Positions 18,538 through 40,908 are shown, counted from the stretch's first letter. The stretch: DNA of 64,000 nt from Fimbriiglobus ruber (GCF_002197845.1 NZ_NIDE01000002.1:124001-188000), one strand, 5' to 3'. Numbers and translations are program-made. Notes: generated from the sequence alone by a model not told the origin.

Positions 18538-21500
18538 TCACCCGATTTGGGTCCGCCATTTTGCGAGGGTTTCACGGTCCGCCTTTGCACAGGGATGACC
18601 AATCTCCTCAAAGTAGGCCAGAGACCGCTCGGCGAATGGAATCGCCTTAGTGTGACGGTCTCGTTTGACTAAAGCCACCGCTAAGTTCCAACTCCCATTC
18701 GCTTCCCCCCGCCGGTCTCCGATCTCGAGGGCGATGACCAGCCGCTGCCGGTAGTGTTCGATCGCGTCGTCCAACCGGCCGAGGGCGGCGTAGGCCGATC
18801 CCAGGTTGCCGAGTGCGTTCCCCTCCCCCCGCCGGTCGCCGATCTCGCGGGCGATGGCCAACCGCTGCCGGTAGTGTTCGATCGCGTCGTCCAACCGGCC
18901 GAGGGCGGCGTAGGCATTTCCCAGGTTGCCGAGTGCGCTCCCCTCCCCCCGCCGGTCGCCGATCTCGCGGGCGATGGCGAGGTTCTGCCGGTAGTGTTCG
19001 ATCGCGTCGTCCACCCGGCCGAGGTCGGCGTAGGCCAATCCCAGGTTGCCGAGTGCGTTCCCTTCCCCCCGCCGGTCGCCGATCTCGCGGGCGATGACCA
19101 ACCACTGCCGGTAGTGTTCGATCGCGTCGTCCACTCGGCCGAGGTCGGCGTAGGCCAGTCCCAGGTTGCCGAGTGCGTTCCCCTCCCCCCGCCGGTCGCC
19201 GATCTCGCGGGCGATGACCAACTGCTGCCGGTAGTGTTCGATCGCGTCGTCCACCCGGCCGAGGGCGGCGTAGGCCAATCCCAGGTTGCCGAGTGCGTTC
19301 CCTTCCCCCCGCCGGTCGCCGATCTCGCGGGCGATGGCGAGGTTCTGCCGGTAGTGTTCGATCGCGTCGTCCACCCGGCCGAGGGCGGCGTAGGCATTTC
19401 CCAGGTTGCCGAGTGCGTTCCCTTCCCCCGCCGGTCGCCGATCTCGCGGGCGATGGCCAACCGCTGCCGGTAGTGTTCGATCGCGTCGTCCAACCGGCCG
19501 AGGGCGGCGTAGGCATTTCCCAGGTTGCCGAGTGCGCTCCCTCCCCCCGCCGGTCGCCGATCTCGCGGGCGATGACCAACCACTGCCGGTAGTGTTCGAT
19601 CGCGTCGTCCACTCGGCCGAGGTCGGCGTAGGCCAGTCCCAGGTTGCCGAGTGCGTTCCCCTCCCCCGCCGGTCGCCGATCTCGCGGGCGATGACCAACT
19701 GCTGCCGGTAGTGTTCGATCGCGTCGTCCACCCGGCCGAGGGCGGCGTAGGCCAATCCCAGGTTGCCGAGTGCGTTCCCTTCCCCCCGCCGGTCGCCGAT
19801 CTCGCGGGCGATGGCGAGGTTCTGCCGGTAGTGTTCGATCGCGTCGTCCACCCGGCCGAGGGCGGCGTAGGCCAATCCCAGGTTGCCGAGTGCGTTCCCT
19901 TCCCCCGCCGGTCGCCGATCTCGCGGGCGATGGCCAACCGCTGCCGGTAGTGTTCGATCGCGTCGTCCAACCGGCCGAGGGCGGCGTAGGCATTTCCCAG
20001 GTTGCCGAGTGCGCTCCCTCCCCCGCCGGTCGCCGATCTCGCGGGCGATGGCCAACCGCTGCCGGTAGTGTTCGATCGCGTCGTCCACTCGGCCGAGGTC
20101 GGCGTAGGCCGATCCCAGGTTGCCGAGTGCGTTCCCCTCCCCCCGCCGGTCGCCGATCTCGCGGGTGATGACCAACTGCTGCCGGTAGTGTTCGATCGCG
20201 TCGTCCACCCGGCCGAGGTCGGCGTAGGCCAATCCCAAGTTGCCGAGTGCACTCCCCTCCCCCCGCCGGTTGCCCGCTTTCCGACAGGCATTAGTCTGTT
20301 CTTTCAACCACACGATTCTTTCGCGAGCCGTCAAACGAAGGCTCAGAATGTTTGCTCCCGCGCTCGGGTAGCTTGCCACCAACTTCGCCGCTGCGAGTTT
20401 CGTCTGACATCGTACCGCCCACTGCCATCCGGCCAGGATGTTTGCCTTCTCGTGATCGAACAGACTCAGCCCGTCGGTTACTCCCTTGCCGCCTTGAAGG
20501 TAAAGATTCTCGGCTTTCGACAATACGCCGCAATAATGCTCGCTAAACCGCAATTCGGCCGCTTCCATTCGCGACCCAGTCTCGGCCGCTGATGGGTGCC
20601 CGGGCACAGCCTCGAATGCCCGGTTAGCTACCTCTCGCAGCAAGTCGTGAAGCCGAAAGCGGAGGGCTTTGTCGTCGAACTGCACCAACCCCCGGGCAAG
20701 CAGGTCTTTGAGATCGACCCGGGCCGCGTCCGCCGCCACTCCCATTACGTCCGCCGTCGCAGGCTCGTCGAAATCGGCCGGGAAGACCGACAGCATTTGC
20801 CATCGCTCGGCGCGTCCCACGTTCTCCCGAATCAATTGACCGGCACTGTACCCCAGAACCGTCATCACGTCTGTCTCGTCGTCGTGGAGCCACTTCGCGC
20901 GCTCAACCCGGAGCTTCGCGAGGTAATCGGGGACCGTCTCGATCGGATCGTTGAGCAGATAATTCCCCGCCACGCGCAGGGCCAGCGGGAGGCCCGCGGC
21001 CAGGCCGGCAAGTTCGTCCAGTTCGGCGTCGGTTCCGCGGTCCGGGCCGATGATCCCGCGGAGCAAGGCCCGCGCGTCGTCCGGGCTCAGTCGGTCGATC
21101 TCCACCGGCTTCACCCCGTCCAGGCGGATGGCCGCGCGGCTGGTCACCACGAAGCCGACCGGCGGCGCCACGCTCACCAGATCCTTGACCTGGGCCCGGT
21201 CCTTCGCGTTATCGAGGACGACCAGCACTGGACCGGCGTTCGCCAGGGTCGTGCGGTAAAGCGGGAGAAGTTTGTCGGCGTCGTCAGGCAGTTTGGCGTC
21301 CGGGTGAAACGTGAGGATCACTTGCCGCATGACATCGGCGGGGGTGGTCGGGTTGTCGGAAACGCCGCGGAGGTCAACGAACAGCTGGCCGGCCGGGAAC
21401 GAGTCGCGGACGCGGGCGGCCACGGCTTTCGCGAGTTCCGTCTTCCCCGCCCCGCCGATGCCCCGGGCCGCGGCGATCATCACCGTCCCGCCGCGGGCCA

Positions 21501-22047
21501 GCGCGCCCGCCATCGCCTCGAATTCCTTCTCCCGGCCGGTGAAGTCGGGTACCGGCGGCGGCACCTGCCACGGGCCGACCGCCCCGGTCCGCGGCTTGAG
21601 GTCGCCGTGGAGTTCGCGCTCCAGGGTGCGGCAGAGTTTGGCGAAGTCGGCGGCGTAATCGCCCATAGCCCGCAGCTGGAGGTTCTGCAAGTCGTGAAGG
21701 CGGGCGAGTTCGCAGTCGGCCGGGAGTTCGTCTTTCGGCGGGAGGGGAACGCCTTCGAGCCGGACGACCAGGACCGTCTTACCGGTCCGGATGCCGGTGC
21801 AGACTTCCTTGCGGACCCAGTCGTCCGGGTCGCGGAGACGGGGCGTGTTCCAGTCCTTGCCGACCAGCACGAGGACGACCCGGCGGTCGGCGAGTTGCTT
21901 TTCGAGGTGGTGCGGCCAGGGGTGGCCGGCGGGGAGGTCGTCGTAGTCGATGAAGACCGCCTCGTTGCCGTAAAGATCCTTGAGCCGGCTGGCCAGGAAG
22001 GTGGCGGGGAACCGGGCGTCGGCGCGGCGGTACGAGAGAAAGATCAT
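18538..22047 (-). CDS. TIR-NB-ARC-TPR protein (bacterial NLR-like)
   Basis: 1169 residues. TIR domain 1-145 (FLSYRRADARFPATFL; W77...E81 in DDWVRKE fits the Glu of catalytic TIRs). NB-ARC NTPase from about 165: P-loop GIGGAGKT (196-203), Walker B VLVVLD (275-280), GLPLALRVAG. A winged-helix-like part precedes the C-terminal TPR array of 13 near-identical 40-residue units. In units 3, 6 and 7 the reading frame is shifted, so the peptide there is Arg/Pro-rich, not TPR; the shifts cancel and the final helices (LVKRDRHTKAIPFAERSLAY) are in frame. ATG 22047 starts the TIR; ATG 22125 is possible. Such proteins are sensors or defence effectors that use NAD; that role is inferred. Confidence 0.85.
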   Translation of the reverse strand: MIFLSYRRADARFPATFLASRLKDLYGNEAVFIDYDDLPAGHPWPHHLEKQLADRRVVLVLVGKDWNTPRLRDPDDWVRKEVCTGIRTGKTVLVVRLEGVPLPPKDELPADCELARLHDLQNLQLRAMGDYAADFAKLCRTLERELHGDLKPRTGAVGPWQVPPPVPDFTGREKEFEAMAGALARGGTVMIAAARGIGGAGKTELAKAVAARVRDSFPAGQLFVDLRGVSDNPTTPADVMRQVILTFHPDAKLPDDADKLLPLYRTTLANAGPVLVVLDNAKDRAQVKDLVSVAPPVGFVVTSRAAIRLDGVKPVEIDRLSPDDARALLRGIIGPDRGTDAELDELAGLAAGLPLALRVAGNYLLNDPIETVPDYLAKLRVERAKWLHDDETDVMTVLGYSAGQLIRENVGRAERWQMLSVFPADFDEPATADVMGVAADAARVDLKDLLARGLVQFDDKALRFRLHDLLREVANRAFEAVPGHPSAAETGSRMEAAELRFSEHYCGVLSKAENLYLQGGKGVTDGLSLFDHEKANILAGWQWAVRCQTKLAAAKLVASYPSAGANILSLRLTARERIVWLKEQTNACRKAGNRRGEGSALGNLGLAYADLGRVDDAIEHYRQQLVITREIGDRRGEGNALGNLGSAYADLGRVDDAIEHYRQRLAIAREIGDRRGRERTRQPGKCLRRPRPVGRRDRTLPAAVGHRPRDRRPAGEGNALGNLGLAYAALGRVDDAIEHYRQNLAIAREIGDRRGEGNALGNLGLAYAALGRVDDAIEHYRQQLVIAREIGDRRGRGTHSATWDWPTPTSAEWTTRSNTTGSGWSSPARSATGGGRERTRQPGKCLRRPRPVGRRDRTLPAAVGHRPRDRRPAGEGNALGNLGNAYAALGRVDDAIEHYRQNLAIAREIGDRRGEGNALGNLGLAYAALGRVDDAIEHYRQQLVIAREIGDRRGEGNALGNLGLAYADLGRVDDAIEHYRQWLVIAREIGDRRGEGNALGNLGLAYADLGRVDDAIEHYRQNLAIAREIGDRRGEGSALGNLGNAYAALGRLDDAIEHYRQRLAIAREIGDRRGEGNALGNLGSAYAALGRLDDAIEHYRQRLVIALEIGDRRGEANGSWNLAVALVKRDRHTKAIPFAERSLAYFEEIGHPCAKADRETLAKWRTQIG
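18721..20274 (-). repeat. 13-unit, 120-bp tandem repeat array inside the TIR-NB-ARC-TPR gene
   Basis: Unit starts on the plus strand are 18721, 18841, 18961, 19081, 19201, 19321, 19440, 19559, 19678, 19798, 19917, 20035 and 20155. Most units are 120 bp. Five are 118-119 bp, and each loss lies in the tract that reads CCCCTCCCCCC or CCCTTCCCCCC in full-length units. Outside that tract the units differ at only a few codons. All three minus-strand frames stay open across much of the array (18647-19993 and 18681-20291 in the other two). Confidence 0.92.
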
Positions 22048-22129
22048 GGGCGGCGACCGGAGAGCCGACGGGGCGTCACACCACTCGCATTTTACCCCGA
22101 ACGCGGGCTCTTGAGATAGTTTCATAACG

Positions 22130-22467: not shown

Positions 22468-22956
22468 AGTCAGGGAGTGGAAGAACTGTCGGGAACCGTT
22501 CTCCAGTCTCGATTCTCGGGAACGTACCCGTACGGTCGATCCGAGCGCATAATCGCGCAAAAACCGGTCCGGACCCGTGCGTACATGTCGATGCCCGTCG
22601 ACGAAACGCGATTCACTGAGCCGACGATTTTTCGTGCAAGGATATCCTGGTTCGCCCATTGTCAGAAAACACGCTGCAAGGTGCGAAAAGCGAAAAAACT
22701 CCCTCGGGTCCGGTTTCATGGCCCGGAAGGACACTTTTTCCCCGTCCGGCAAGATTCTCGGCCGGCAACGATTTTTCCGCCATTCTTCATATCCGCACTA
22801 ACAATTCGCCACAGAATTCGCGCTCTAGCGAAAGTGATGCCGCACAGTTATTAGCCCGCGAACTCCGCGAATTCGGAGAGTATGATGGTCACATAAGACT
22901 GCGTGGGGCTTCGACTGGTGTCGAAGCCCCACGCCCCTCCCGAGGATCCGTGTGGC

Positions 22957-24453
22957 ATGGAGTCGACGTCCGACTTGTGGCAGACACTCGTCGAATGCCA
23001 CGTCATCACCGACGCACAACTGGCCCAGGCGGTCGAGGCCGCCGGCGACGAGGACGGGGACGCGGTCCTGACCGAGTTGGCCGCCGGGCCGGCTTGGTGG
23101 GGGAGTGGCCTCACGCCCCGCCCCCAGGGCCTCACGCCGTACCAGTTGGACATGATCCACACGTACGTCCCGGAGGGCGACTTCCGCCGGTTGCGCCGGC
23201 ACCTGGCGATCAACCGCTTTCTATTCCTCGACGTACTCGGGCGAGGCGGCCAGGGGGAAGTCCTCCGGGCGTGGCACGTCCCGTCCCGCCGGTTCGTGGC
23301 CGTCAAGCTCCAGCACCAGCGGTCCGAGCTCGCGCGGCAGCGGTTCGAGCAGGAAGCCAAGGCGATGATGAAGGTCAACCACCCGGCGGTCGCCCGGTTC
23401 TTGCAGTACGAGCGGATCCGCGACGACGCCGGCGAACTGACCGACGAATACCTGATCGCGATGGAGTACGTCCCGGGGGTAGACCTCGGCCGGGTCACGG
23501 GAACCGGCGTCCCGTGGCGGACCGCGGCCGGGTGGGTCATTCAGCTGGCCGGCGGGCTCGAACACCTGCACGCCCGGGGGTTCGTCCACCGGGACGTGAA
23601 GCCGAAGAACATCATGGCCGTCGGGGCCGACCCGGACGCGGCCGGGCCGCCCCCGGAAGGCACGCACGTCAAGCTCCTGGACCTCGGCGCGGTCCACGTG
23701 GTCGACCCGGACGCGCGGGGGCCGCAGTCGGGCCGGGCCGTGGGCACGGCGGCGTTCGCCCCACCGGAGCAGTGGGGCCGGGGCGGGACGACCGGGGCGT
23801 CCGACCTGTACGCGCTGGGCGGCACGTTCTACTACCTGCTGACCGGTCGGTACCCGTACCAGTCCGACGACGGGGCCGACACGATCCCCCGGCTCATCGC
23901 CGCCCACGCCGACAACCCGCCCCCGGACGTGTGGGAGACGGCCCACGGGAAGCGGACGATCCCGGTCGCCGTCCGCGGCCTGATCCGGCGCATGATGGCC
24001 AAGAGCCCGGCCGACCGCGGGGTGCCGCGGGACGTGATCAAGGTTCTCGAAGCGGCCCTCGAAGCCGATCCCAAGTCGAAGGCGACCCAGCGGCCGGTCA
24101 CTCCCACCCCCTCGCCCCCGGCTACCCCGACACCCCCACCGTCCTCCCGCAAGACGCCGGTGGCGTCAAAAGACACCCCACTCGCTCCCCCCTTACCGCC
24201 ACCGCCGCCGGTGCGCAAGAGCGGCACCGACCTGACCTCGAAGGAGTCGACCCAACCGGCTTTGGAGTTGGTCCTGTCGGCCCTCGAACGAATATTCCTG
24301 CCCGGGGGCCAGCGAGCGGCTGCCGGGTACGACGATTATTCCGCCCGCGAGCGCGTCTTCGCTTTGCTCCGCCGTCCGATGGTGCTATTGTTGTTCCTGA
24401 TCGGTACCGGCCTGCTCGGGTTGTGCCTCTGGCGGACCCTCGGGCGGGGTTGA
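22957..24453 (+). CDS. Serine/threonine protein kinase, membrane-anchored
   Basis: 498 residues. Kinase domain from about 88: GRGGQGEV (95-102), catalytic-site lysine K117 in VAVK, catalytic loop HRDVKPKN (211-218, D213). The metal-binding triad is DLG (242-244) in place of DFG, a common variant. APPEQW is the APE motif. A Pro-rich linker (about 380-430) leads to a single TM helix near the end (LLLFLIGTGLLGLCLW). The kinase is therefore cytoplasmic with a C-terminal anchor. ATG 22957 is chosen for its GAGG. The FHA protein downstream is a likely partner. Confidence 0.93.
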   Translation: MESTSDLWQTLVECHVITDAQLAQAVEAAGDEDGDAVLTELAAGPAWWGSGLTPRPQGLTPYQLDMIHTYVPEGDFRRLRRHLAINRFLFLDVLGRGGQGEVLRAWHVPSRRFVAVKLQHQRSELARQRFEQEAKAMMKVNHPAVARFLQYERIRDDAGELTDEYLIAMEYVPGVDLGRVTGTGVPWRTAAGWVIQLAGGLEHLHARGFVHRDVKPKNIMAVGADPDAAGPPPEGTHVKLLDLGAVHVVDPDARGPQSGRAVGTAAFAPPEQWGRGGTTGASDLYALGGTFYYLLTGRYPYQSDDGADTIPRLIAAHADNPPPDVWETAHGKRTIPVAVRGLIRRMMAKSPADRGVPRDVIKVLEAALEADPKSKATQRPVTPTPSPPATPTPPPSSRKTPVASKDTPLAPPLPPPPPVRKSGTDLTSKESTQPALELVLSALERIFLPGGQRAAAGYDDYSARERVFALLRRPMVLLLFLIGTGLLGLCLWRTLGRG

Positions 24454-24620
24454 GCGACGGCCGAAGTCCTTGCGATTCGGTCCGCGGTCCTTTAATATTT
24501 GCAGTACTCCGACGAAACCCCCGCGGCGCCCCCGGCGAGCTATACGCCCGACCGGCACGGGAGGACCTGAATTCGTTCTGACACCTGTTCTTCCTATTGA
24601 CGGCCGTAGGCGGGACGAAT

Positions 24621-25949
24621 ATGAGTGCTGTCCTCCGGAACCTGCGGACCGATCAGGTCTTCTCACTCCACCCCGCCCGAACGCTCGTCGGGTCGGCGAC
24701 CCAGGCGGATATTGCCCTGGCCCCCGAAGCCCCCCACCTGGCGGGCCTGATTACCCGCTACCCGTCGGGGTGGGTGTGGCACGTGTTGGCCGACGCGGCA
24801 CCGGTCGAGCGTGCCGGCCACCCGTACACCTTCGGGGAGCGGATCATTCTGAACGGGGACGACACGATCGCCGTCGCCGGCGAGACGTTCCACTTTCACA
24901 TCCCCGCGTCCGCCCGTAAGCCCGCGTCGACCCCGGTGTCGAACCCGACGTGCCACCTGAGCGTTACCGGGCCGGACGGGCACGAGGAGTCGTGGCGCGT
25001 CGACCACGACCTGGTGATCGGCCGGCTCCCGGAATGTCACGTGTTGAGCCCGGACCGCCGCCTGTCCCGCATGCACGCCCTTCTGGCGTGCGAATCGGGG
25101 GCGGTGTACTTCTACAACCTGACGAACAAGCCGGTCGCCCGGAACCGGAAGATGGTCGAACACCGGACGATCCTCAGCCACGGCGACGAACTTCAGGTCG
25201 GCCCGCTGGTCGCCCACGTAGATATCGAACACGCCCCGCAGCCGGTCGTCGACGTGATTCACCGACCGATGTCGGCCGCGACCTCGGCCGCAGCCGAGGC
25301 GGTCCTCGGCGCCCCGACGCCCTCCCGCGGGGCGCCCGCGCGCGGGGACAGCGGCACCCGGTTGGGGAAGGGCGCCGAAGACCGGCCGACCGACGAGGGC
25401 GAGGCCGGGCCGACCGACACCACGACCGACTCCGACCCGATCCTCGGCATAATCCGCACCAACGCGAAAGAACTGGACCGGTGGCTGGCTTCGGCGGCAT
25501 CTCCGACCGCGGCCGGCGGCAGTTGGGTCGGGCGGGCGTTCTCGGACGCCGGGACCGTCGCCAAGGGCCGCGATCTGGTCAACCGCGGGCAGCTGCTGGA
25601 AGCCTTCGGCTACTTGCGCGACGCCGTCCGCAAGAATCCTGAGAGCAAGGAGATGCTCCGCGAGTTGTACCGCTTTTACCGGCACGTCGGGCTCGTGCAG
25701 TTCTGTTACCGCCCGCTGCGGCGGATGGAGAAGTTGGGCGAGGGCCAGGGCAAGCCCGACCCCTACGTGTTGGAACAGCTCGCCCGGGTGTGTGGCGAAC
25801 TCGGACCCACCCAGCGGGACATGTTCGCCCGCGCTCTGTCGTACTGGAAGAAGCTCGAAGGCGTGACCGGGACCAATTACGCGAAAGAGCGGAACACGCT
25901 CATGGCCGAGCAGGCGTTATCCGAGGGCGGGTACGGCGGGCGGACCTGA
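24621..25949 (+). CDS. FHA-domain protein
   Basis: 442 residues, no signal peptide. The N-terminal 100 residues look like a divergent FHA domain (VFSLHPARTLVGSATQADIAL). A clear second FHA follows at about 115-205: DHDLVIGRLPECHVLSP, RRLSRMHALL, LSHGDELQVG. This domain binds phosphothreonine peptides. The C-terminal 120 residues are helical and TPR-like (RGQLLEAFGYLRDAVRKNP). It lies 167 bp after the kinase, consistent with a kinase-reader pair. ATG 24621 is used; TTG 24597 is possible. Confidence 0.85.
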   Translation: MSAVLRNLRTDQVFSLHPARTLVGSATQADIALAPEAPHLAGLITRYPSGWVWHVLADAAPVERAGHPYTFGERIILNGDDTIAVAGETFHFHIPASARKPASTPVSNPTCHLSVTGPDGHEESWRVDHDLVIGRLPECHVLSPDRRLSRMHALLACESGAVYFYNLTNKPVARNRKMVEHRTILSHGDELQVGPLVAHVDIEHAPQPVVDVIHRPMSAATSAAAEAVLGAPTPSRGAPARGDSGTRLGKGAEDRPTDEGEAGPTDTTTDSDPILGIIRTNAKELDRWLASAASPTAAGGSWVGRAFSDAGTVAKGRDLVNRGQLLEAFGYLRDAVRKNPESKEMLRELYRFYRHVGLVQFCYRPLRRMEKLGEGQGKPDPYVLEQLARVCGELGPTQRDMFARALSYWKKLEGVTGTNYAKERNTLMAEQALSEGGYGGRT

Positions 25950-25966
25950 CCGCCGGCCCGTTCGCC

Positions 25967-25995
25967 TCGACACTTCTTTGGTCGGTCGGTACATA
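25967..25995 (+). promoter_or_regulatory. Promoter-like site of repeat-leader copy 1
   Basis: TCGACA (25967-25972), 17-bp spacer, TACATA (25990-25995). The same two boxes and spacing recur upstream of the next two genes, and in all three the -10-like box is about 35-40 bp before an identical ribosome-binding site and ATGCCGATCG start. No transcript data. Confidence 0.55.
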
Positions 25996-26031
25996 CCCAC
26001 CCTGTTCGCCCGAGGACAGGGAGGATTCGGC

Positions 26032-27378
26032 ATGCCGATCGTCAGCGTGATGTTATCGAGCGGGTTGCTAATCGCTACGATCGCGGGCGCGATGGGAACT
26101 GGGTCCGAACTGCTTTCGCGAGGCACGTCGCAGGCCCCGGGCAAAATCGTAGTGGTGATACCGGACGGGCCTGTTCCGTCGGGTGAGCCGCTATATGAGA
26201 TTGGTTGCTGCGAATTCCACCTCGATTTCGGCGTGCCCCCACCAGTTGATTTTGAACTGGTGGCGACCGACAAACTGACCGGGAAGGCCCGGCTCCTGTC
26301 TTGTAAGTGCAAACAGATCACGTTTCAGAATCTCTGGGACGAACGGCGTGAGCAGGTGCTGGCATCCGCAACGCTTTTTGTGTTGCTCGGGCGACATCCA
26401 TTTCTGTCATCGGTATCAGCAACGCAGGACGAACCTTCAGTCAAATCGCTTATCGCGGTGCGACCTCCGGCCGCGGGGATTAAAGACCGAATGGTGGTGG
26501 GAATCGTTGATGTCAAACGGAACGAGCGGTGGGGGGCGATCGACGGGGTTCTTGTGCGAACCCTGGAACGCTACGCCCCGAAGCCGTGGAAGCCTGACGG
26601 ACCCGGCTTCCATCCAGCTTTTCGGCTCGACTTTGGGGGAGGAGGGCACGCACCGCCTGTCTGCACGATTTCGGACTGGGTGAGCGACACTCTGCTTACG
26701 CTGTCGTCGCCTCACCAAGAATTGTTATTCGAATCCAGCGTGGACCAGAGTATTGCATGGCGTTCGGTCCGGGCGGAACTTGATGGATGGAAGTCTAACC
26801 TGGAAGAAACCACCGACTGCCACCTAGAATTGGACGCGAGTGCCCGACCGGAAAAACGATCCGCTTCGCTGTTCGACAACCTGCTTTATCAACGGTCGTC
26901 GTCAAATTCGGTTCCGCCCGTGATTGTCCTGCAGAACACCAGTGTTCGCCTGGGATACTCCATCGCGAAGACGGAACGGTCCGGGCTGAAAGCAGTCGAA
27001 CTGTGGGTGACCAGCGACGGCCAGACATGGCGCCAGGCCGCCACCGCGAAGCCCGGCCAACCCCTCGAAGTCGACTTTTGTGCAGACGGCGTGTACGGCG
27101 TTCGGTTCGGTTTCGTCCGCCCCAACGACAGGTACGCGGGTTGGCCCCGCCCGGGCGACCCACGGCCGGGCGATGTCCCTCAACTGACGGTCGTGGTCGA
27201 AACTGCTGGTTCGGAATCGCGCTCGACCGACCGGGCCGCTGCCCTCTTGTCAGACTCCACGCACGTCTTCGCAACCGGCCAGTGGTGGCTGGTTGATGTC
27301 CCAGAAAATCGGCAGCCAAACAAGACGGACAACACGCAGCTCTTTTCCGTCGACGTTGGGTGGTTCGGTGGCCAGTAG
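26032..27378 (+). CDS. Secreted protein, LTGK family member 1
   Basis: 448 residues. N-terminal signal-like segment (VMLSSGLLIATIAGAMG). A motif ATDKLTGKARLL occurs near residue 83. The C-terminal 120 residues (VELWVTSDGQTWRQAAT, DGVYGVRFGFVRP, GDVPQLTVVVE) form a beta-rich module found again in the next gene. AGGGAGG at 26018-26024 and ATG 26032 fix the start. Part of a three-gene series with one leader. Its middle is less GC-rich. Function unknown; probably periplasmic or surface. Confidence 0.72.
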   Translation: MPIVSVMLSSGLLIATIAGAMGTGSELLSRGTSQAPGKIVVVIPDGPVPSGEPLYEIGCCEFHLDFGVPPPVDFELVATDKLTGKARLLSCKCKQITFQNLWDERREQVLASATLFVLLGRHPFLSSVSATQDEPSVKSLIAVRPPAAGIKDRMVVGIVDVKRNERWGAIDGVLVRTLERYAPKPWKPDGPGFHPAFRLDFGGGGHAPPVCTISDWVSDTLLTLSSPHQELLFESSVDQSIAWRSVRAELDGWKSNLEETTDCHLELDASARPEKRSASLFDNLLYQRSSSNSVPPVIVLQNTSVRLGYSIAKTERSGLKAVELWVTSDGQTWRQAATAKPGQPLEVDFCADGVYGVRFGFVRPNDRYAGWPRPGDPRPGDVPQLTVVVETAGSESRSTDRAAALLSDSTHVFATGQWWLVDVPENRQPNKTDNTQLFSVDVGWFGGQ

Positions 27379-27406
27379 CACGCCCCGCGCGGGTAGCCCG
27401 TTCGTC

Positions 27407-27435
27407 TCGACACATTTTCAACGGAACGGTAGAAG
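27407..27435 (+). promoter_or_regulatory. Promoter-like site of repeat-leader copy 2
   Basis: TCGACA (27407-27412), 17-bp spacer, TAGAAG (27430-27435). Same arrangement as copy 1; the flanking GTTCG(C/T)C and the CAGGGAGG further down are also shared. Confidence 0.5.
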
Positions 27436-27469
27436 CTTTTGGTTCGCCCGGAACCAGGGAGGGTTTCGC

Positions 27470-28891
27470 ATGCCGATCGTCAACGGGATGTTATCAGGCG
27501 GCGTGTTGATCGCCACGCTCGCGGGCGCTGTAGTGAACAAGCCCGAAATACCTCCGCGGGGTATGCAATCCCCCGGTCCCGGCAAAATTGTGGTGGTCGG
27601 GCCGGAGAAGTCCGTTACTCAGGTCGTTCCCTCGCCCACGTTCTATGCGGACCTTTTACCAGACCTACAGGCGGTCGAAATTGAGTCGGTGACGACTGAC
27701 AAGTTAACTGGGAAGAATCGGCCCATAACATGGATACCCACGCAATTCCCGGCCGGGCTGGATCTGAGTGTTTCGCCTTCCCGCCAGCCGTTTTGTTCCC
27801 CGTGTGTCACGACTTGTTTATCGGCAGGGCAGTGCCCGATTCTGTCGCACGTGCTGGCCAGCAACGCCCATGCCAATGCACCCCGTCACCCGATAGCCGT
27901 TGTGATCCCTCCTTCGCCGACCGCGAAAGAACAGACTGTGGTCGGCATTTTGGACACACACCAAAGGAAACGGTGGGGTCAAACCGATGAGGCTGTTTTC
28001 TACGATCGAACGCACATGAAAAGGTTGTTGCTTTGCATATACGGAGGCACCATCGACACCATGCCGGTTGATGACTATGCGATTTCTATGATAGAGAACG
28101 ACTTTATGGCTTCAAATATGATGTCTAGCTTACTGTTGTCGTTGTCGGCAATTCAAGCGCTTTGGCGGTTGTCCGACGACGAACGGAATCGCGAATGGCA
28201 TCCGCGTGAAATGAAACGCTTCGACCCGCAGGTGGCTGCGGGCTTCAATGCCTTCTCGGCACTCACCACGAAAGCCATGCTTGAAACGAGACGTGACGAC
28301 CGACGGACAGTTGTGGATTCACCGACCAACTTTCAGGTAGAACTGGACGCGAGCGTGCGGCCGGCGGCACAAGCTTCCTCGCTGTTCGACAACCTCTCGG
28401 CCCACCGACCGCTGCCGAGGTCGGTCCCCCCTGCTGTCGTGGTCCAAGACTCGCACGACCGGTTGGGTTACGTCGTGCCAAAGCAGGACCTCTCCGGGCT
28501 AGAAGCGGTCGAACTTTGGATCACTACCGACGGTCAGACGTGGCGTGTGGCCGCGACCGCGCAACCCGGCGAACCCCTCGCGGCCGACTTCGGTGCGGAC
28601 GGCGTGTACGGGGTGCGGTTCGGGTTCGTGCGCCCCGGTAACAAGGGGGCGGGATGGCCCAGCCCGAACGCCCCGCAACCAGGCGACGCACCACAGATGA
28701 CTGTGGAAGTCGATTCGCTGCGCTCGGAAAAACACTCGGCCGGGCGGGTCATTGCCCCGCGGCCCGACCCAGCGCATATCTTCTCTGCTGGCCCTTGGTG
28801 GTCGACGGGCACGTCGGAAGACGGGCAGTCAGACGAGGCCGACCGGAAGCAGATCTTTTCCTTCTTCGTCGGCTGGTTCGGCGGACAGTAG
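27470..28891 (+). CDS. Secreted protein, LTGK family member 2
   Basis: 473 residues. Paralogue of the preceding gene: starts MPIVNGMLSGGVLIATLAGA (signal-like), then TTDKLTGKNRPI, a divergent middle with many Met and Ser, and the same C-terminal module (VELWITTDGQTWRVAAT, DGVYGVRFGFVRP, GDAPQMTVEVD). Both end GWFGGQ. The conserved ends and divergent middles suggest different partners or substrates on one scaffold. Start fixed by the shared ribosome-binding site. Confidence 0.72.
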   Translation: MPIVNGMLSGGVLIATLAGAVVNKPEIPPRGMQSPGPGKIVVVGPEKSVTQVVPSPTFYADLLPDLQAVEIESVTTDKLTGKNRPITWIPTQFPAGLDLSVSPSRQPFCSPCVTTCLSAGQCPILSHVLASNAHANAPRHPIAVVIPPSPTAKEQTVVGILDTHQRKRWGQTDEAVFYDRTHMKRLLLCIYGGTIDTMPVDDYAISMIENDFMASNMMSSLLLSLSAIQALWRLSDDERNREWHPREMKRFDPQVAAGFNAFSALTTKAMLETRRDDRRTVVDSPTNFQVELDASVRPAAQASSLFDNLSAHRPLPRSVPPAVVVQDSHDRLGYVVPKQDLSGLEAVELWITTDGQTWRVAATAQPGEPLAADFGADGVYGVRFGFVRPGNKGAGWPSPNAPQPGDAPQMTVEVDSLRSEKHSAGRVIAPRPDPAHIFSAGPWWSTGTSEDGQSDEADRKQIFSFFVGWFGGQ

Positions 28892-28920
28892 TTCGCCCCA
28901 ACTCAGGTGGCACGTTCGTC

Positions 28921-28950
28921 TCGACACACTCTCCACCCGGCCGGTAGACT
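28921..28950 (+). promoter_or_regulatory. Promoter-like site of repeat-leader copy 3
   Basis: TCGACA (28921-28926), 18-bp spacer, TAGACT (28945-28950). Third copy of the same leader, followed by CAGGGAGGGTTCGGC and ATGCCGATCG. Confidence 0.5.
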
Positions 28951-28986
28951 CCCTCCTGTTCGACCGAGAATCAGGGAGGGTTCGGC

Positions 28987-29667
28987 ATGCCGATCGGGCG
29001 TAAGTTGTTGACGGGCGTTACACTGTTCACTGCGGTCTTGTGCGCGTGCTGGGCCGCGACGGCGGCGGCTCATTCCGCCCGGGGCTTGAAACCGGCCGCG
29101 AGCCTGGCCCCCCCCCTCACCCCCGCGCCGGCACTGCTGCAACTCTCTTCGGCCCCGCCAGCCGAGATCGAATCGGCCGCGACCGACATGTTGACTGGGA
29201 AGATCGCCCTCTCGCCGACGGCGTTCGCGGCCGTCGCACAATCCACACCCGGCGAGCGCGCCGCGCAGCCGCAACAGTCCGCGCCTCCATCCGCCTCAAA
29301 CGCGCCGGCCGCGGTCCGGTTGGACGCCGCGGACTTTTTGACCGGGAAAGCCCCACTGCCGCCACAACTGCTCGCGGCGATGGCGAACGCCAATCCCCCG
29401 CCGCGGGCGATTACCGTCGTGGTCCCGCCGTTTTCGGAGCCAGCTCCCGCGCGGGCCGGGCTCGGCGTTCCGGATGTCATCCGACTGGCGAAGCAAGGGC
29501 AGAGCGACGAACTCATTCTCAAAACCTTACGGGACGCGCACGCGACGTTTCGGCTCGCGCCGCGAGACGTCGTCACGCTCAAGGAAAGCCAGGTTTCGGA
29601 CCGGGTGATCGTCGCGATGATGGCCCTGCCGCTGTCCCTGCCGGTCCCGTCGGTTCCGGCCGAGTGA
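28987..29667 (+). CDS. Secreted protein, LTGK family member 3 (short)
   Basis: 226 residues. Signal peptide (LFTAVLCACWAATAAA). Two LTGK motifs: ATDMLTGKIALSPTAFAAV and AADFLTGKAPLPPQLLAAM. It lacks the C-terminal module of members 1 and 2. In its place is a helical repeat (DVIRLAKQGQSDELILKTL, DVVTLKESQVSDRVIVAMM), a type seen in many secreted bacterial proteins. The start codon context is the same as in members 1 and 2, so the leader is shared although the body differs. Function unknown. Confidence 0.7.
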   Translation: MPIGRKLLTGVTLFTAVLCACWAATAAAHSARGLKPAASLAPPLTPAPALLQLSSAPPAEIESAATDMLTGKIALSPTAFAAVAQSTPGERAAQPQQSAPPSASNAPAAVRLDAADFLTGKAPLPPQLLAAMANANPPPRAITVVVPPFSEPAPARAGLGVPDVIRLAKQGQSDELILKTLRDAHATFRLAPRDVVTLKESQVSDRVIVAMMALPLSLPVPSVPAE

Positions 29668-29721: not shown

Positions 29722-30612
29722 GTGCAGAAGCCGTACGACGCGACGAGCAAAGAACTCCTCGAATCCGACCCGGCCGGGTGGGTCGCGTACCTGACCGGGT
29801 CCGCCCCGCCCGGGCCGGTGCGGGTCGTCGACGCGGACGTGTCGACGGTCACCGCCGAGGCGGACAAGGTGATCCGGGTCGACGGGCCCGACCCGTGGGT
29901 GTTGCACCTGGAGTTCCAGACGCACGCCGAGGACTGGTTCCCGCCCCGCCTGCTGCGGTACAATGCCCTCTTGCACTACCGCCACAAGCTGTCCGTCTCG
30001 ACGGTCGTGTTCCTGTTGCGGCCGGCCGCGAACATGACGTCCGCGACGGGGTCGTGGGTGGTGCGGCCACCGGTCGGTCCCGAGTGGGAGTACAAGTACC
30101 GGGTGATCCGGGTGTGGGAGCGGCCACCGGCCGATTTCCTGACCGGGGCTCTCGCCCTGCTCCCGCTGGCCCCGATCGCGGCGACCGACGAGGCCAGTCT
30201 GCCCGAGATCGTCGACCGGATTGGCCACCGACTCCGGGCGGAAGCCGACCACCCATTGGGCGCGAAGCTGTGGACGAGTACCGGCGTGTTGATGGGGTTG
30301 CGATACGAGAACGACCTGATTGAGAGCCTACTCGGAGGAACCCTGCAGATGGAAGAATCGACGTTTTACCGGGCGATTCTGGCCCGGGGAGAAGCGACGG
30401 GGGAAGCGAAGGGAGAAGCGAGGGGGGAAGCGAAGGGCCGACTCGCCGAGGCCCGGGCGATCATTTTGCGCCTCGGTCAACAGCGGCTCGGTTCGGCTCC
30501 CACTATCGTCGTCGCTACATTGACCGCGATCACCGACCTGACGCGCCTGGAAGAACTCTCCGACCGCCTATTACTCGTGAGTAGTTGGGACGAACTCCTC
30601 GGTCACGCGTGA
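29722..30612 (+). CDS. Rpn-family (PD-(D/E)XK) nuclease-like protein
   Basis: 296 residues. The order of blocks matches Rpn/RpnC-type recombination-promoting nucleases: a conserved Asp early in the fold (VVDADVSTVTAEAD), the E-x-Q active-site strand (WVLHLEFQTHAE), RLLRYNALLHYRHKL, then a helical half. A GEATGEAKGEARGEAKG repeat forms a charged linker before a helical tail (LTRLEELSDRLLLVSSWDELL). GTG 29722 follows GGAGGGG. These proteins are linked to DNA cleavage and to dispersed selfish or defence genes; the role here is inferred. Confidence 0.75.
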   Translation: MQKPYDATSKELLESDPAGWVAYLTGSAPPGPVRVVDADVSTVTAEADKVIRVDGPDPWVLHLEFQTHAEDWFPPRLLRYNALLHYRHKLSVSTVVFLLRPAANMTSATGSWVVRPPVGPEWEYKYRVIRVWERPPADFLTGALALLPLAPIAATDEASLPEIVDRIGHRLRAEADHPLGAKLWTSTGVLMGLRYENDLIESLLGGTLQMEESTFYRAILARGEATGEAKGEARGEAKGRLAEARAIILRLGQQRLGSAPTIVVATLTAITDLTRLEELSDRLLLVSSWDELLGHA

Positions 30613-30668: not shown

Positions 30669-31020
30669 GCCACCCGTTGGGCGCGAGGCTGTGAATCAGC
30701 ACGGGCGTGCTGATGGGTTGCGGTACGAAAACGACCTGATTGAGAGCCTACTCGGAGGAACCCTGCAGATGGAAGAATCGACGTTTTACCGGGCCATCCT
30801 GGCCCGGGGAGAAGCGAAGGGAGAAGCGAGGGGGGAAGTGAAGGGCCGACTCGCCGAGGTGCGGGCCATCATCTTGCGTCAGGGCAACACGCGGTTCGGT
30901 CCGGCCCCGGCTACCATCGTCACCACGTTGACCGCGATTACCGATCTGACGCGCCTGGAAGAACTCACCGACCGCGTACTCATCGTGGGCAGTTGGGACG
31001 AACTCCTCGGCCACGCGTGA
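30669..31020 (+). pseudogene. Truncated tandem copy of the Rpn-like gene 3' half
   Basis: This stretch repeats 30249-30612 at a fixed offset of about 420 bp. It begins in the middle of the gene. An in-frame stop (TGTGAATC for TGTGGACG) and a one-base loss (GATGGGTTGCGG) break the reading near its start. After those the frame is open to GHA-stop. The GEA linker is 12 bp shorter (GEAKGEARGEVKG). Codon differences are mostly silent or conservative, so it was a functional sequence before truncation. Confidence 0.8.
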
Positions 31021-37747: not shown

Positions 37748-39103
37748 CTACCCCTCGTCTTGAGGGGCGCGGGTCGCCCCGAGGAGGCTCTGGGTCAGCG
37801 GGCCGCCCGCCACGAGCAGTTCAGCCAGCGCTTCCTCGACGTGCCGGTCGCGCACAACGAGTTCGGCCCCGTCGCCTTCCTCGGCGGCGAACACGGCCGC
37901 TTTCCGGAGCAGCTCGCGGATGAACGCCCCGCTCACCCCGGCGGTCCGGGCGATGAGGGCGTCCCAATTCTCGACTGCCACATCCAGACCGCGACCGAAC
38001 AGGGTAAAGAGCCGGCGGCGGCAATCCGCGTCCGGCGGCGGGACCTCGATGGCTTGGTCGATCCGGCCCGGTCGGGCCGCGAGCGCCGGTTCCAGGATGT
38101 CCGGGCGGTTCGTCGTCAGGACGAACAGGATGTCGGTGTCGTCCGCCAGCCCGTCCATCTGGTTGAGCAACTCGAACAGCAGGGCGTTGGCGTCCACGGT
38201 CTGGCGGTTCCGCTGGGTGCCGATCAGGTCCACGTCTTCGAGGATCACGGTCGCCGGGGCGAGCATCCGCGCGAGTTTGCAGACCGTCTCGACGGACCCC
38301 ATGCCCGCCCCGGTGAGGATCAGGACCGTCCGGCCCGGCATCTGTGTCACGAGGTACATGGCGGTGAGCGTCTTGCCCGTGCCCGGCGGCCCGTGCAGCA
38401 GGAGCCCGCGCTTCAGGTGCCGCCGGGCCGCGCGGAGCACTTCCGTGTGTCGGTTGAAACTCAGGGTGTGCCGCTCGATCCGGCGGAGGAGCGCGTCCGG
38501 CAGGATCAGTTCGTCCCGGCTGATTGCGGGCAGGTGGTGGAAGTGGACTTCGAGCCCACCGTGGCAGTCCTGCTTCAAGGAAAGGGTGTGCCCGCGGAAG
38601 GCCTTGCCGAAACGAGTCCGTCGCGCCAGTTGTCGGCTGAACGTCTCGGCCCGTTCCCGGTCGACGGCCATCACCTCGACCCCGAACTGTGCCTGCCACG
38701 AGTGTGCGGGTTCGGTGAGCAAGACGGCCAGCGGGTGATCGTCTTCCCTGATCAGGTACAACCCGTTCTTCGCGCAACCGAGATGCCGGTCCCCGGGCAA
38801 GGGCAGGTCGGCGTATTCGACCGGTCCGGCGTCGAAATTTTTCGCCGAGCCGGCGCGCGACATCCGGGCCAGACTCGCCGAGCGGTATTCCTCCAAAACG
38901 ATCACGCCCAGGAGTTCCGACGCGCGCTGCGGCTCCGCGAGCATTTCCGTCAGCGCGAGCTGGAGGTTGACTCGCTCATAGGTCGCGAATTCCTGCTCGA
39001 CGACCGGTAGCGTGGCGGGGTCGCGGGCGAAGTGGGAGAGGAGGCGGCCCAGGAGCGCCGGCTCACCGGCGGGCGGCTCATCGGCGGCGGGTTGTGCCAT
39101 CAT
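37748..39103 (-). CDS. AAA+ ATPase
   Basis: 451 residues. The N-terminal 200 residues are not recognised. The AAA domain follows: Walker A HGPPGTGKT (237-245), Walker B VILEDVD (286-292), sensor TTNRPD and the arginine-finger region ARPGRID. It is of the classical Cdc48/FtsH-like clade. The C-terminal helical lid ends with an Ala-rich helix. No membrane segment or protease site, so it is probably a remodelling ATPase. Its 5' end is copied 1.1 kb away in another ORF. Confidence 0.85.
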   Translation of the reverse strand: MMAQPAADEPPAGEPALLGRLLSHFARDPATLPVVEQEFATYERVNLQLALTEMLAEPQRASELLGVIVLEEYRSASLARMSRAGSAKNFDAGPVEYADLPLPGDRHLGCAKNGLYLIREDDHPLAVLLTEPAHSWQAQFGVEVMAVDRERAETFSRQLARRTRFGKAFRGHTLSLKQDCHGGLEVHFHHLPAISRDELILPDALLRRIERHTLSFNRHTEVLRAARRHLKRGLLLHGPPGTGKTLTAMYLVTQMPGRTVLILTGAGMGSVETVCKLARMLAPATVILEDVDLIGTQRNRQTVDANALLFELLNQMDGLADDTDILFVLTTNRPDILEPALAARPGRIDQAIEVPPPDADCRRRLFTLFGRGLDVAVENWDALIARTAGVSGAFIRELLRKAAVFAAEEGDGAELVVRDRHVEEALAELLVAGGPLTQSLLGATRAPQDEG

Positions 39104-39746: not shown

Positions 39747-40214
39747 TCACGGATCGCTTGGAGCGGTTTCGGGAACCCACTGTCTGACTCGAGCCCGCCG
39801 CACGAGGACGGCATACACCACGCCGGCCACAACTCCGACGCCCATGCCCATGACGATCCCCTGGAGGGTGCCACCATAGAGCGTCATCATTTGCTCGTGC
39901 GGCGTGCCTCGACCCGCCGGCAGAGGCGGGAAAAGCCAGGGGTTGAGCGCGGTGCCGGCGATCGAACCGACACCGCTGCCCGCGGCGCAAAAGCCGAACG
40001 CACACCCGGGAATACTCGGCAAGTGTCGGCCGTCCGCCATCGGTGTACCCTGCTGGACTACCCCGTGCATGGAGACTTCCACACGCTTCCAACACTCGCG
40101 AGTATCGCTCGCGAATTCCTGCTCGACGACCGGTAGCGTGGCGGGGTCGCGGGCGAAGTGCGAGCGGAGGCGCCCCAGAAGTGCCGGCTCACCGGCGGCA
40201 GGTTGTGCCATCAT
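39747..40214 (-). CDS. Chimeric ORF: AAA N-terminus fused to a small membrane protein
   Basis: 155 residues. The first 35 (MMAQPAAGEPALLGRLRSHF and on) repeat the start of the AAA+ gene, including its ribosome-binding site GAGGG. After a short bridge the protein has two membrane segments (FGFCAAGSGVGSIAGTAL and GIVMGMGVGVVAGVVYAVLV). Translation could instead begin at ATG 40040, giving a 97-residue membrane protein. It may be a recombination product that still encodes a usable fusion; I cannot tell which start is used. Confidence 0.5.
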   Translation of the reverse strand: MMAQPAAGEPALLGRLRSHFARDPATLPVVEQEFASDTRECWKRVEVSMHGVVQQGTPMADGRHLPSIPGCAFGFCAAGSGVGSIAGTALNPWLFPPLPAGRGTPHEQMMTLYGGTLQGIVMGMGVGVVAGVVYAVLVRRARVRQWVPETAPSDP

Positions 40215-40223
40215 TTGCCCTCT
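40109..40223 (-). repeat. Second copy of the AAA+ gene 5' end
   Basis: 40109-40223 matches 38983-39113 closely, with a deletion of about 15 bp (MMAQPAA-DEPPA-GEP against MMAQPAA-GEP) and a few substitutions. The match starts at TCGCGAATTCCTGCTCGACG on the plus strand and ends just beyond the start codon. This is a segmental duplication of the first about 40 codons and the translation signal. Confidence 0.75.
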
Positions 40224-40236
40224 CCAATTGCAAGAG

Positions 40237-40908
40237 CTATCCAAACTCGACCATACTCTTGAATTCTAGACTCTGACGGAATCGTTCGGACAGATACAGC
40301 CAGCAGTACCGCTCGATCCAGTATGGGTGGCTTCCCTCTTCCTCTTCATGAATAGCGCGGGCCACCGCGTCGCTCACCTGCCCTTGTTCCAAGGGTATTT
40401 CCAGCAAAGGGGCTACCTGAATCAACTCCTGAAAGCACCTTTGGCTGGAGCCCAACATTCCGCCGGGTAGTTTATCTTCGGCATCAAGGAGAGGTTCGGG
40501 AAAATCGACAGGGACAAAATACCCTTCGGTCGGAGAATGACAAATAAGGTGTGACTCGTTCGAGCAAAGTTCTTCGACAACGCGCTCGTCGTCGACGGGA
40601 TTCACTCCGTCCGAGACCGGCGAGAACTCTTCTGGAGCTTGTTTCGCGTAGGCCACGGCACGCCAGAGGTGCGCGAGCCATGCATACGGCATCGAACTCA
40701 GCCACAGTCCCTGCTTGATCCCCCTATCCCACGTCAGCCCCTCTCGGTCGCGAATGGGCGGTACGATCTCGGGTTCGAGATGCACGGGCAAACCATTGGC
40801 GTTCAAGACGCGATTGATCTCCTTGATATCTCCTCGCAGAGTGTCAACCGCATCTGGATCATACCGTAAGGCATGCGCCAATGATCCGACACGCACGGCG
40901 AGACCCAT
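40237..40908 (-). CDS. Hypothetical cytoplasmic protein
   Basis: 223 residues starting MGLAVRVGSLAHALRYDPD, with GGGAGG upstream of ATG 40908. No signal peptide or TM. The middle has a Trp/Tyr-rich part (WLSSMPYAWLAHLWRAVAYA) and an acidic region. No family recognised. The open frame extends upstream to 41037 but that part has no supporting site. Confidence 0.62.
   Translation of the reverse strand: MGLAVRVGSLAHALRYDPDAVDTLRGDIKEINRVLNANGLPVHLEPEIVPPIRDREGLTWDRGIKQGLWLSSMPYAWLAHLWRAVAYAKQAPEEFSPVSDGVNPVDDERVVEELCSNESHLICHSPTEGYFVPVDFPEPLLDAEDKLPGGMLGSSQRCFQELIQVAPLLEIPLEQGQVSDAVARAIHEEEEGSHPYWIERYCWLYLSERFRQSLEFKSMVEFG

What the first reader, a model, noticed from the sequence alone, without database searches (positions are those of the whole stretch)
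25967..29000. One promoter/leader used three times in front of three secreted proteins
Seen: three copies of TCGACA, 17-18 bp, TA(C/G)A(T/A/C)(A/G/T), then CAGGGAGG and ATGCCGATCG, before genes of 448, 473 and 226 codons. Members 1 and 2 are full paralogues. Member 3 shares only the leader, the signal peptide start and LTGK motifs. A unit of leader plus start codon seems to have been duplicated and joined to a new body, giving coregulated variants.
Basis: partly seen in the sequence, partly recalled or inferred. Interest (0 to 1): 0.6.

Follow-up and report, generated by a model that had tools for sequence, protein, structure and literature searches.

The report
Duplicated gene family keeping its leader
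Four related genes for exported proteins in one planctomycete-like bacterium have kept the same start signal, and probably a small RNA hairpin next to the ribosome-binding site, because each gene was copied together with its control region; this is ordinary gene duplication, not a promoter moved onto an unrelated gene.

Summary
The three leaders are real. Each has TCGACA, a 17-18 bp spacer, TA(C/G)A.., GGGAGG and ATG, at 25967, 27407 and 28921. Member 3 is homologous to members 1 and 2 well beyond the signal peptide (E 4e-10 and 5e-5, over residues about 57-193) and mainly lacks their roughly 200-residue C-terminal domain. A model of the four leaders finds only these four in the 12.4-Mb genome (72-82 bits; next 17) and nothing convincing in 94 related genomes. 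The leader therefore travels with its gene family. It looks like a promoter of the common sigma-70 type: TTGAC-N18-TANNNT is enriched upstream of genes in this genome. The boxes are invariant among the paralogues while the spacers have diverged to chance level. It probably sits at the very 5' end of the mRNA and may stabilise it or tune translation. Modest interest; transcription start, sigma factor and protein function are untested.

The parts
25967..25972 (+). M1 -35-like box TCGACA, inside the conserved block GTTCGCCTCGACAC (25960-25973)
25990..25995 (+). M1 -10-like box TACATA, preceded by CGG, 17 bp spacer
26000..26021 (+). M1 5'UTR stem-loop CCCTGTTC-GCCCGA-GGACAGGG; 3' arm ends in the first GGG of the SD
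26019..26024 (+). M1 Shine-Dalgarno GGGAGG, 7 nt before ATG
26032..27378 (+). M1: exported (signal-peptide-like N-terminus) 448-aa protein with LTGK motif and the C-terminal domain that ends WFGGQ
   Evidence: no Pfam or NCBIfam family above cut-off
27407..27412 (+). M2 -35-like box TCGACA
27430..27435 (+). M2 -10-like box TAGAAG, preceded by CGG, 17 bp spacer
27438..27458 (+). M2 5'UTR stem-loop TTTGGTTC-GCCCG-GAACCAGG
27457..27462 (+). M2 Shine-Dalgarno GGGAGG
27470..28891 (+). M2: 473-aa exported paralogue of M1
28921..28926 (+). M3 -35-like box TCGACA
28945..28950 (+). M3 -10-like box TAGACT, preceded by CGG, 18 bp spacer; also picked by the generic promoter scan (9 of 12)
28954..28976 (+). 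M3 5'UTR stem-loop TCCTGTTC-GACCGA-GAA(T)CAGGG with one bulged T
28974..28979 (+). M3 Shine-Dalgarno GGGAGG
28987..29667 (+). M3: 226-aa exported homologue of the N-terminal half of M1/M2; lacks their C-terminal domain and has a short domain (residues ~153-221) common in the family

Best explanation
The leader is the promoter and short 5' untranslated region of an ancestral gene for an exported protein. The gene was copied several times together with its own leader: a tandem triplet here plus one copy 148 kb away. The coding parts then diverged and gained or lost C-terminal domains. Working model: RNA polymerase with the housekeeping (sigma-70-type) factor reads TCGACA-N17/18-TANAnn. Transcription starts about 7 nt downstream, inside the 5' arm of a stem-loop. 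The mRNA thus begins with a hairpin whose 3' arm runs into the Shine-Dalgarno site, which would protect the 5' end from decay and/or moderate translation. Supported by sequence analysis: the four leaders, their restriction to this gene family, box conservation, and a hairpin with paired changes. Inferred: transcription start, sigma factor, hairpin function, coregulation.
For: Only four leaders genome-wide, all before homologous genes. Other exact two-box matches in the genome lie inside long ORFs, with one unclear case. M3 is homologous to M2 and M1 beyond the leader, and M4 shares the C-terminal domain. CTCGACAC and CGGTA are identical in all four while the spacers are 21-50% identical, against 50% at four-fold sites in the M1/M2 bodies. 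In upstream regions TTGAC.-N-TA...T peaks at an 18-bp spacer on the sense strand only (6 against 0; 17-19 bp: 13 against 3). Hairpin: 32 of 32 cells paired in the structural register with six both-side changes over four pairs; joint folding energy z -6.4, 0 of 4000 shuffles; stems as strong next to the SD in only 1-3% of 177 other genes for M1, M2 and M4.
Against: No transcript data. The hairpin register was chosen by hand and M3 needs a bulge. M2 alone folds no better than dinucleotide shuffles (z -0.2 to -0.4). RNAalifold on the plain sequence alignment misses the stem. TCGACA itself is not enriched on the sense strand of upstream regions (52 against 61), so the promoter reading leans on its closeness to TTGACA and on the spacing.
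Confidence: 0.7

Rival explanations
1. A leader-plus-start-codon cassette was copied and joined to new bodies, as a mobile promoter and signal-peptide unit.
For: M3 differs completely from M1/M2 in the C-terminal part; leader and codons 1-5 are closely alike in M1-M3.
Against: M3 is homologous to M2 over residues 60-178. No leader in front of non-homologous genes in the genome. M4 has leader, signal peptide and C-terminal domain together.
Confidence: 0.08
2. The inverted repeat is a DNA operator for a transcription factor that overlaps the transcription start, not an RNA hairpin.
For: An inverted repeat just downstream of -10, where the start is expected, is a usual place for an operator (established knowledge).
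Against: The arm sequences differ between copies (M4 shares only 4-5 of 8 pairable positions with the others' arms), so one protein would not be expected to recognise all; pairing, not sequence, is kept.
Confidence: 0.12
3. The leader is read by an alternative or ECF sigma factor and defines a small regulon of four genes.
For: The block GTTCG(C/T)CTCGACAC is longer than a sigma-70 -35 box, and the exact element is confined to four genes.
Against: The 17-18 bp spacing, TCGACA (5 of 6 to TTGACA) and TAGACT fit the sigma-70 type enriched in this genome. Confinement to paralogues is explained by descent. The ECF-like GGAAC-N-GTC pattern is not enriched on the sense strand (12 against 20).
Confidence: 0.15
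4. The leader is part of a longer coding sequence, conserved as protein.
For: ORFs of M1, M2 and M4 are open upstream of the ATG, and ..NQGGFGM-like residues can be read before it.
Against: M3 has an in-frame TAG in the -10 box with no start codon between it and the ATG (seen; open frame 239 codons). Leader lengths differ by 2 and 1 nt, breaking frame.
Confidence: 0.03

Closest known systems
Sigma-70-type (group 1) promoter
   Same: TCGACA/TAGACT boxes (9 of 12 to consensus in M3), 17-18 bp spacing, A at position 2 of the -10 box in all copies
   Different: -35 carries C instead of T at position 2 within a longer invariant block; -10 boxes of M1 and M2 lack the final T; start site and sigma factor unknown
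5'-terminal mRNA-stabilising stem-loops (E. coli ompA and papA, B. subtilis aprE leaders; cited in PMC3997798)
   Same: A hairpin at or very near the predicted 5' end, followed by a Shine-Dalgarno site
   Different: Here the 3' arm enters the Shine-Dalgarno site and the whole 5'UTR is about 30-35 nt; no half-life data; sequence relation to those leaders not claimed
Tandem paralogous gene families with co-duplicated promoters
   Same: Each copy carries its own leader, whose conserved block starts about 10-25 nt after the previous stop; one dispersed copy
   Different: The C-terminal domain differs in one member (M3)

Membership tests
Sigma-70-type promoter | -35 near TTGACA and -10 near TATAAT, 16-18 bp apart | tested here: met
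   TCGACA-N17/18-TACATA/TAGAAG/TAGACT; M3 found by the consensus scan with 9 of 12; M1 and M2 fail that scan because the -10 box lacks the final T
Sigma-70-type promoter | Same architecture used generally in this genome | tested here: met
   TTGAC.-N18-TA...T peak on the sense strand only in 623 upstream regions; small counts
Sigma-70-type promoter | Transcription starts about 7 nt after -10; housekeeping sigma required | not testable with these tools
   needs 5'-end mapping and in vitro transcription
5'-terminal mRNA-stabilising stem-loop | Stable stem-loop in the 5'UTR kept through paired changes | tested here: met
   but the register was hand-chosen and RNAalifold misses it on the MAFFT alignment
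5'-terminal mRNA-stabilising stem-loop | At most a few unpaired nucleotides at the 5' end | tested here: inconclusive
   predicted start falls in the 5' arm in all four, but this rests on assumed -10 to +1 spacing
5'-terminal mRNA-stabilising stem-loop | Lengthens mRNA half-life | not testable with these tools
   needs decay assay
Known RNA family (riboswitch, thermometer) | Match to an Rfam model | tested here: not met
   no match at E<=1
Mobile or shared leader cassette | Same leader in front of non-homologous genes | tested here: not met
Any Pfam or NCBIfam protein family | Score above curated cut-off | tested here: not met

The most novel reading that the evidence does not exclude
A compact promoter plus 5'-terminal hairpin that partly masks the Shine-Dalgarno site is maintained by selection on structure, and acts as a dedicated post-transcriptional switch (temperature, ligand or protein) for a small exported-protein family found so far in one planctomycete-like genome.
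Probability: 0.15. Interest if true: 0.45.

Novelty: new member of a known kind. Interest (0 to 1): 0.27.

Why it matters
It gives a clean natural experiment. Four diverged paralogues keep the -35 block, the CGGTA of the -10 region, the SD and a stem-loop while everything between has been randomised. That footprints a promoter and 5'UTR in a phylum where promoters are poorly mapped (in PMC11958385 candidate promoters of Planctopirus limnophila were predicted by bprom and compared with the sigma-70 consensus). It also warns that a shared leader with a seemingly different body can be plain paralogy.

Tried and rejected
De novo two-block EM on 623 upstream regions drifted to base composition and was uninformative; the spacing profile replaced it. 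RNAalifold on the MAFFT alignment did not recover the stem because the alignment is out of register. AlphaFold2 models of M2 and M3 were unusable (mean pLDDT 28 and 44), so no fold search was run. Protein scan of genome contigs gave no relatives; DNA-pattern scan gave 5 chance-like hits in unrelated phyla. R1 hits below 23 bits in relatives were read and set aside: some are coding, some are other promoter-like leaders. One, G110:C262 (L093, TTCCCCTCGACAC...CGGTATCC before an unrelated lipoprotein-like gene), could be a similar promoter but is within chance for 95 genomes. Rfam: nothing. PDB: nothing meaningful.

Full report
Setting. The window is C2:124001-188000 of a 12.36-Mb genome in 20 contigs. 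I take it to be a Gemmataceae-like planctomycete from genome size, base composition and gene content; the tools name no organism, so this is inference.

Observation. The three leaders are as described. M1: TCGACA 25967-25972, 17 bp, TACATA 25990-25995, GGGAGG 26019-26024, ATG 26032. M2: TCGACA 27407-27412, 17 bp, TAGAAG 27430-27435, GGGAGG 27457-27462, ATG 27470. M3: TCGACA 28921-28926, 18 bp, TAGACT 28945-28950, GGGAGG 28974-28979, ATG 28987. CAGGGAGG alone is not unusual in the window (5 matches against 2.35 expected), but the whole leader is: a sequence model scores the three at 76-82 bits.

A fourth copy. The genome search found TCGACAC-N14-CGGTAGACT exactly twice, at M3 and at C2:300802-300831 on the minus strand. 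The latter is followed by a hairpin, GGGAGG and ATG of a 313-aa protein, M4. A protein search independently hit the same gene (C2:299817-300200, E 2e-17 to the M2 C-terminal part). M4 ends ..WFGGQ like M1 and M2.

Who carries the leader. Model R1, built from the four leaders, finds exactly four places above 17 bits in the genome (72-82 bits). In 94 other family genomes the best hit is 22 bits and does not sit before a homologue. The bare two-box pattern CTCGACAC-N12-15-CGGTA occurs nine times in the genome: the four leaders and five others. Four of those five lie inside long open frames; the fifth, C9:114625, is less clear but has no such leader downstream. A scan of 84,980 species genomes for the pattern with the SD gave five hits in unrelated phyla, as chance predicts.

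Bodies. M1 and M2 share 53% identity over the C-terminal 198 residues and 37% over the N-terminal 179. M3 aligns to M2 over residues 60-178 (E 4e-10), including LTGK and the stretch IAVVIPPSPTAKEQTVVGILDTHQRKRWGQTDE, which corresponds to ITVVVPPFSEPAPARAGLGVPDVIRLAKQGQSDE in M3. The M1-M3 match (E 5e-5) runs to M3 residue 193. M3 therefore lacks the C-terminal domain rather than having a wholly foreign body. Its own last ~70 residues match a short domain found in 54 of 95 family genomes. No Pfam or NCBIfam family passes its cut-off for any member. The C-terminal domain has distant relatives in about half of the sampled relatives; one of these shows weak BNR/Asp-box hits below the Pfam cut-off. 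Its function is unknown; export is inferred from hydrophobic N-termini.

Is the leader a promoter? In 623 upstream regions from about 1.28 Mb of the genome, TTGAC.-N-TA...T shows a spacing peak at 18 bp on the sense strand (6 against 0; 17-19 bp: 13 against 3), and TTGACA is 31 sense against 14 antisense. This is the sigma-70 pattern, and the leaders fit it with C for T in the -35 box. Among the four paralogues CTCGACAC and CGGTA are 100% identical and the SD-ATG block 81-94%, while the 13-14 nt spacers are only 21-50% identical. Four-fold sites of identical residues in M1/M2 are 50% identical (32 of 64; 31% by chance). Selection on the boxes is therefore likely; no transcript data exist.

Hairpin. 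Between -10 and SD each leader can form a stem-loop: M1 26000-26021, M2 27438-27458, M3 28954-28976 with one bulged T, and M4. In the structural register all 32 cells of 8 pairs x 4 genes are standard pairs. Pairs 3-6 have both-side changes, six cells in all, and pair 6 shows C-G, U-A and G-C. Dealing the 3' letters anew gives 25 of 32 on average, P about 0.0009. Shuffling the stretch between -10 and SD never reached the joint folding energy in 4000 trials (z -6.4). Stems of the strength of M1, M2 and M4 touching the SD occur in 1-3% of 177 other genes. Cautions: I chose the register by hand, four paralogues are few, M2 alone is not significant against dinucleotide shuffles, and RNAalifold on the sequence alignment fails to see it. 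The arm sequences differ so much between M4 and the rest that a common protein operator is unlikely. With a usual -10 to +1 distance, transcription would start inside the 5' arm, so the mRNA would begin with the hairpin; its 3' arm takes up the first two or three G of GGGAGG. This resembles, by position, the stabilising 5' stem-loops of ompA, papA and aprE (references listed in PMC3997798); that resemblance is an analogy, not a test.

Conclusion. This is ordinary duplication of a gene with its promoter and 5'UTR, three times in tandem and once dispersed, followed by body divergence and loss or gain of a C-terminal domain. Coregulation is plausible but untested. The interesting residue is the conserved stem-loop next to the Shine-Dalgarno site.

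Noticed in passing
window 18538-22125 (-), repeats 18704-20274: An ORF with a TIR-like start and NB-ARC-like middle ends in about 13 near-identical 120-bp TPR-coding repeats (92% matches); three of the repeat units are read in other frames within the same open ORF, and the frame is later restored.
   Followed up: partly
window 22903-25949 (+): A Ser/Thr protein kinase gene and an FHA/TPR-domain gene lie directly upstream; the conserved part of the M1 leader begins about 10 nt after the FHA gene's stop, so read-through transcription into M1 is possible.
   Followed up: partly
window 29722-30612 and 30691-31020 (+): A DUF4351-like gene (weak Pfam hit, below the cut-off) followed by a truncated second copy of its C-terminal part.
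   Followed up: no
window 37748-39103 and 39747-40244 (-): Two neighbouring minus-strand ORFs begin with nearly the same MMAQPAA..GEPALLGRL.SHFARDPATLPVVEQEFA sequence, a partial gene duplication.
   Followed up: no
L093 (G110:C262:5670-5731, -): A related genome has TTCCCCTCGACAC-N13-CGGTATCC before an unrelated lipoprotein-like gene; it could be the same promoter type or chance.
   Followed up: partly
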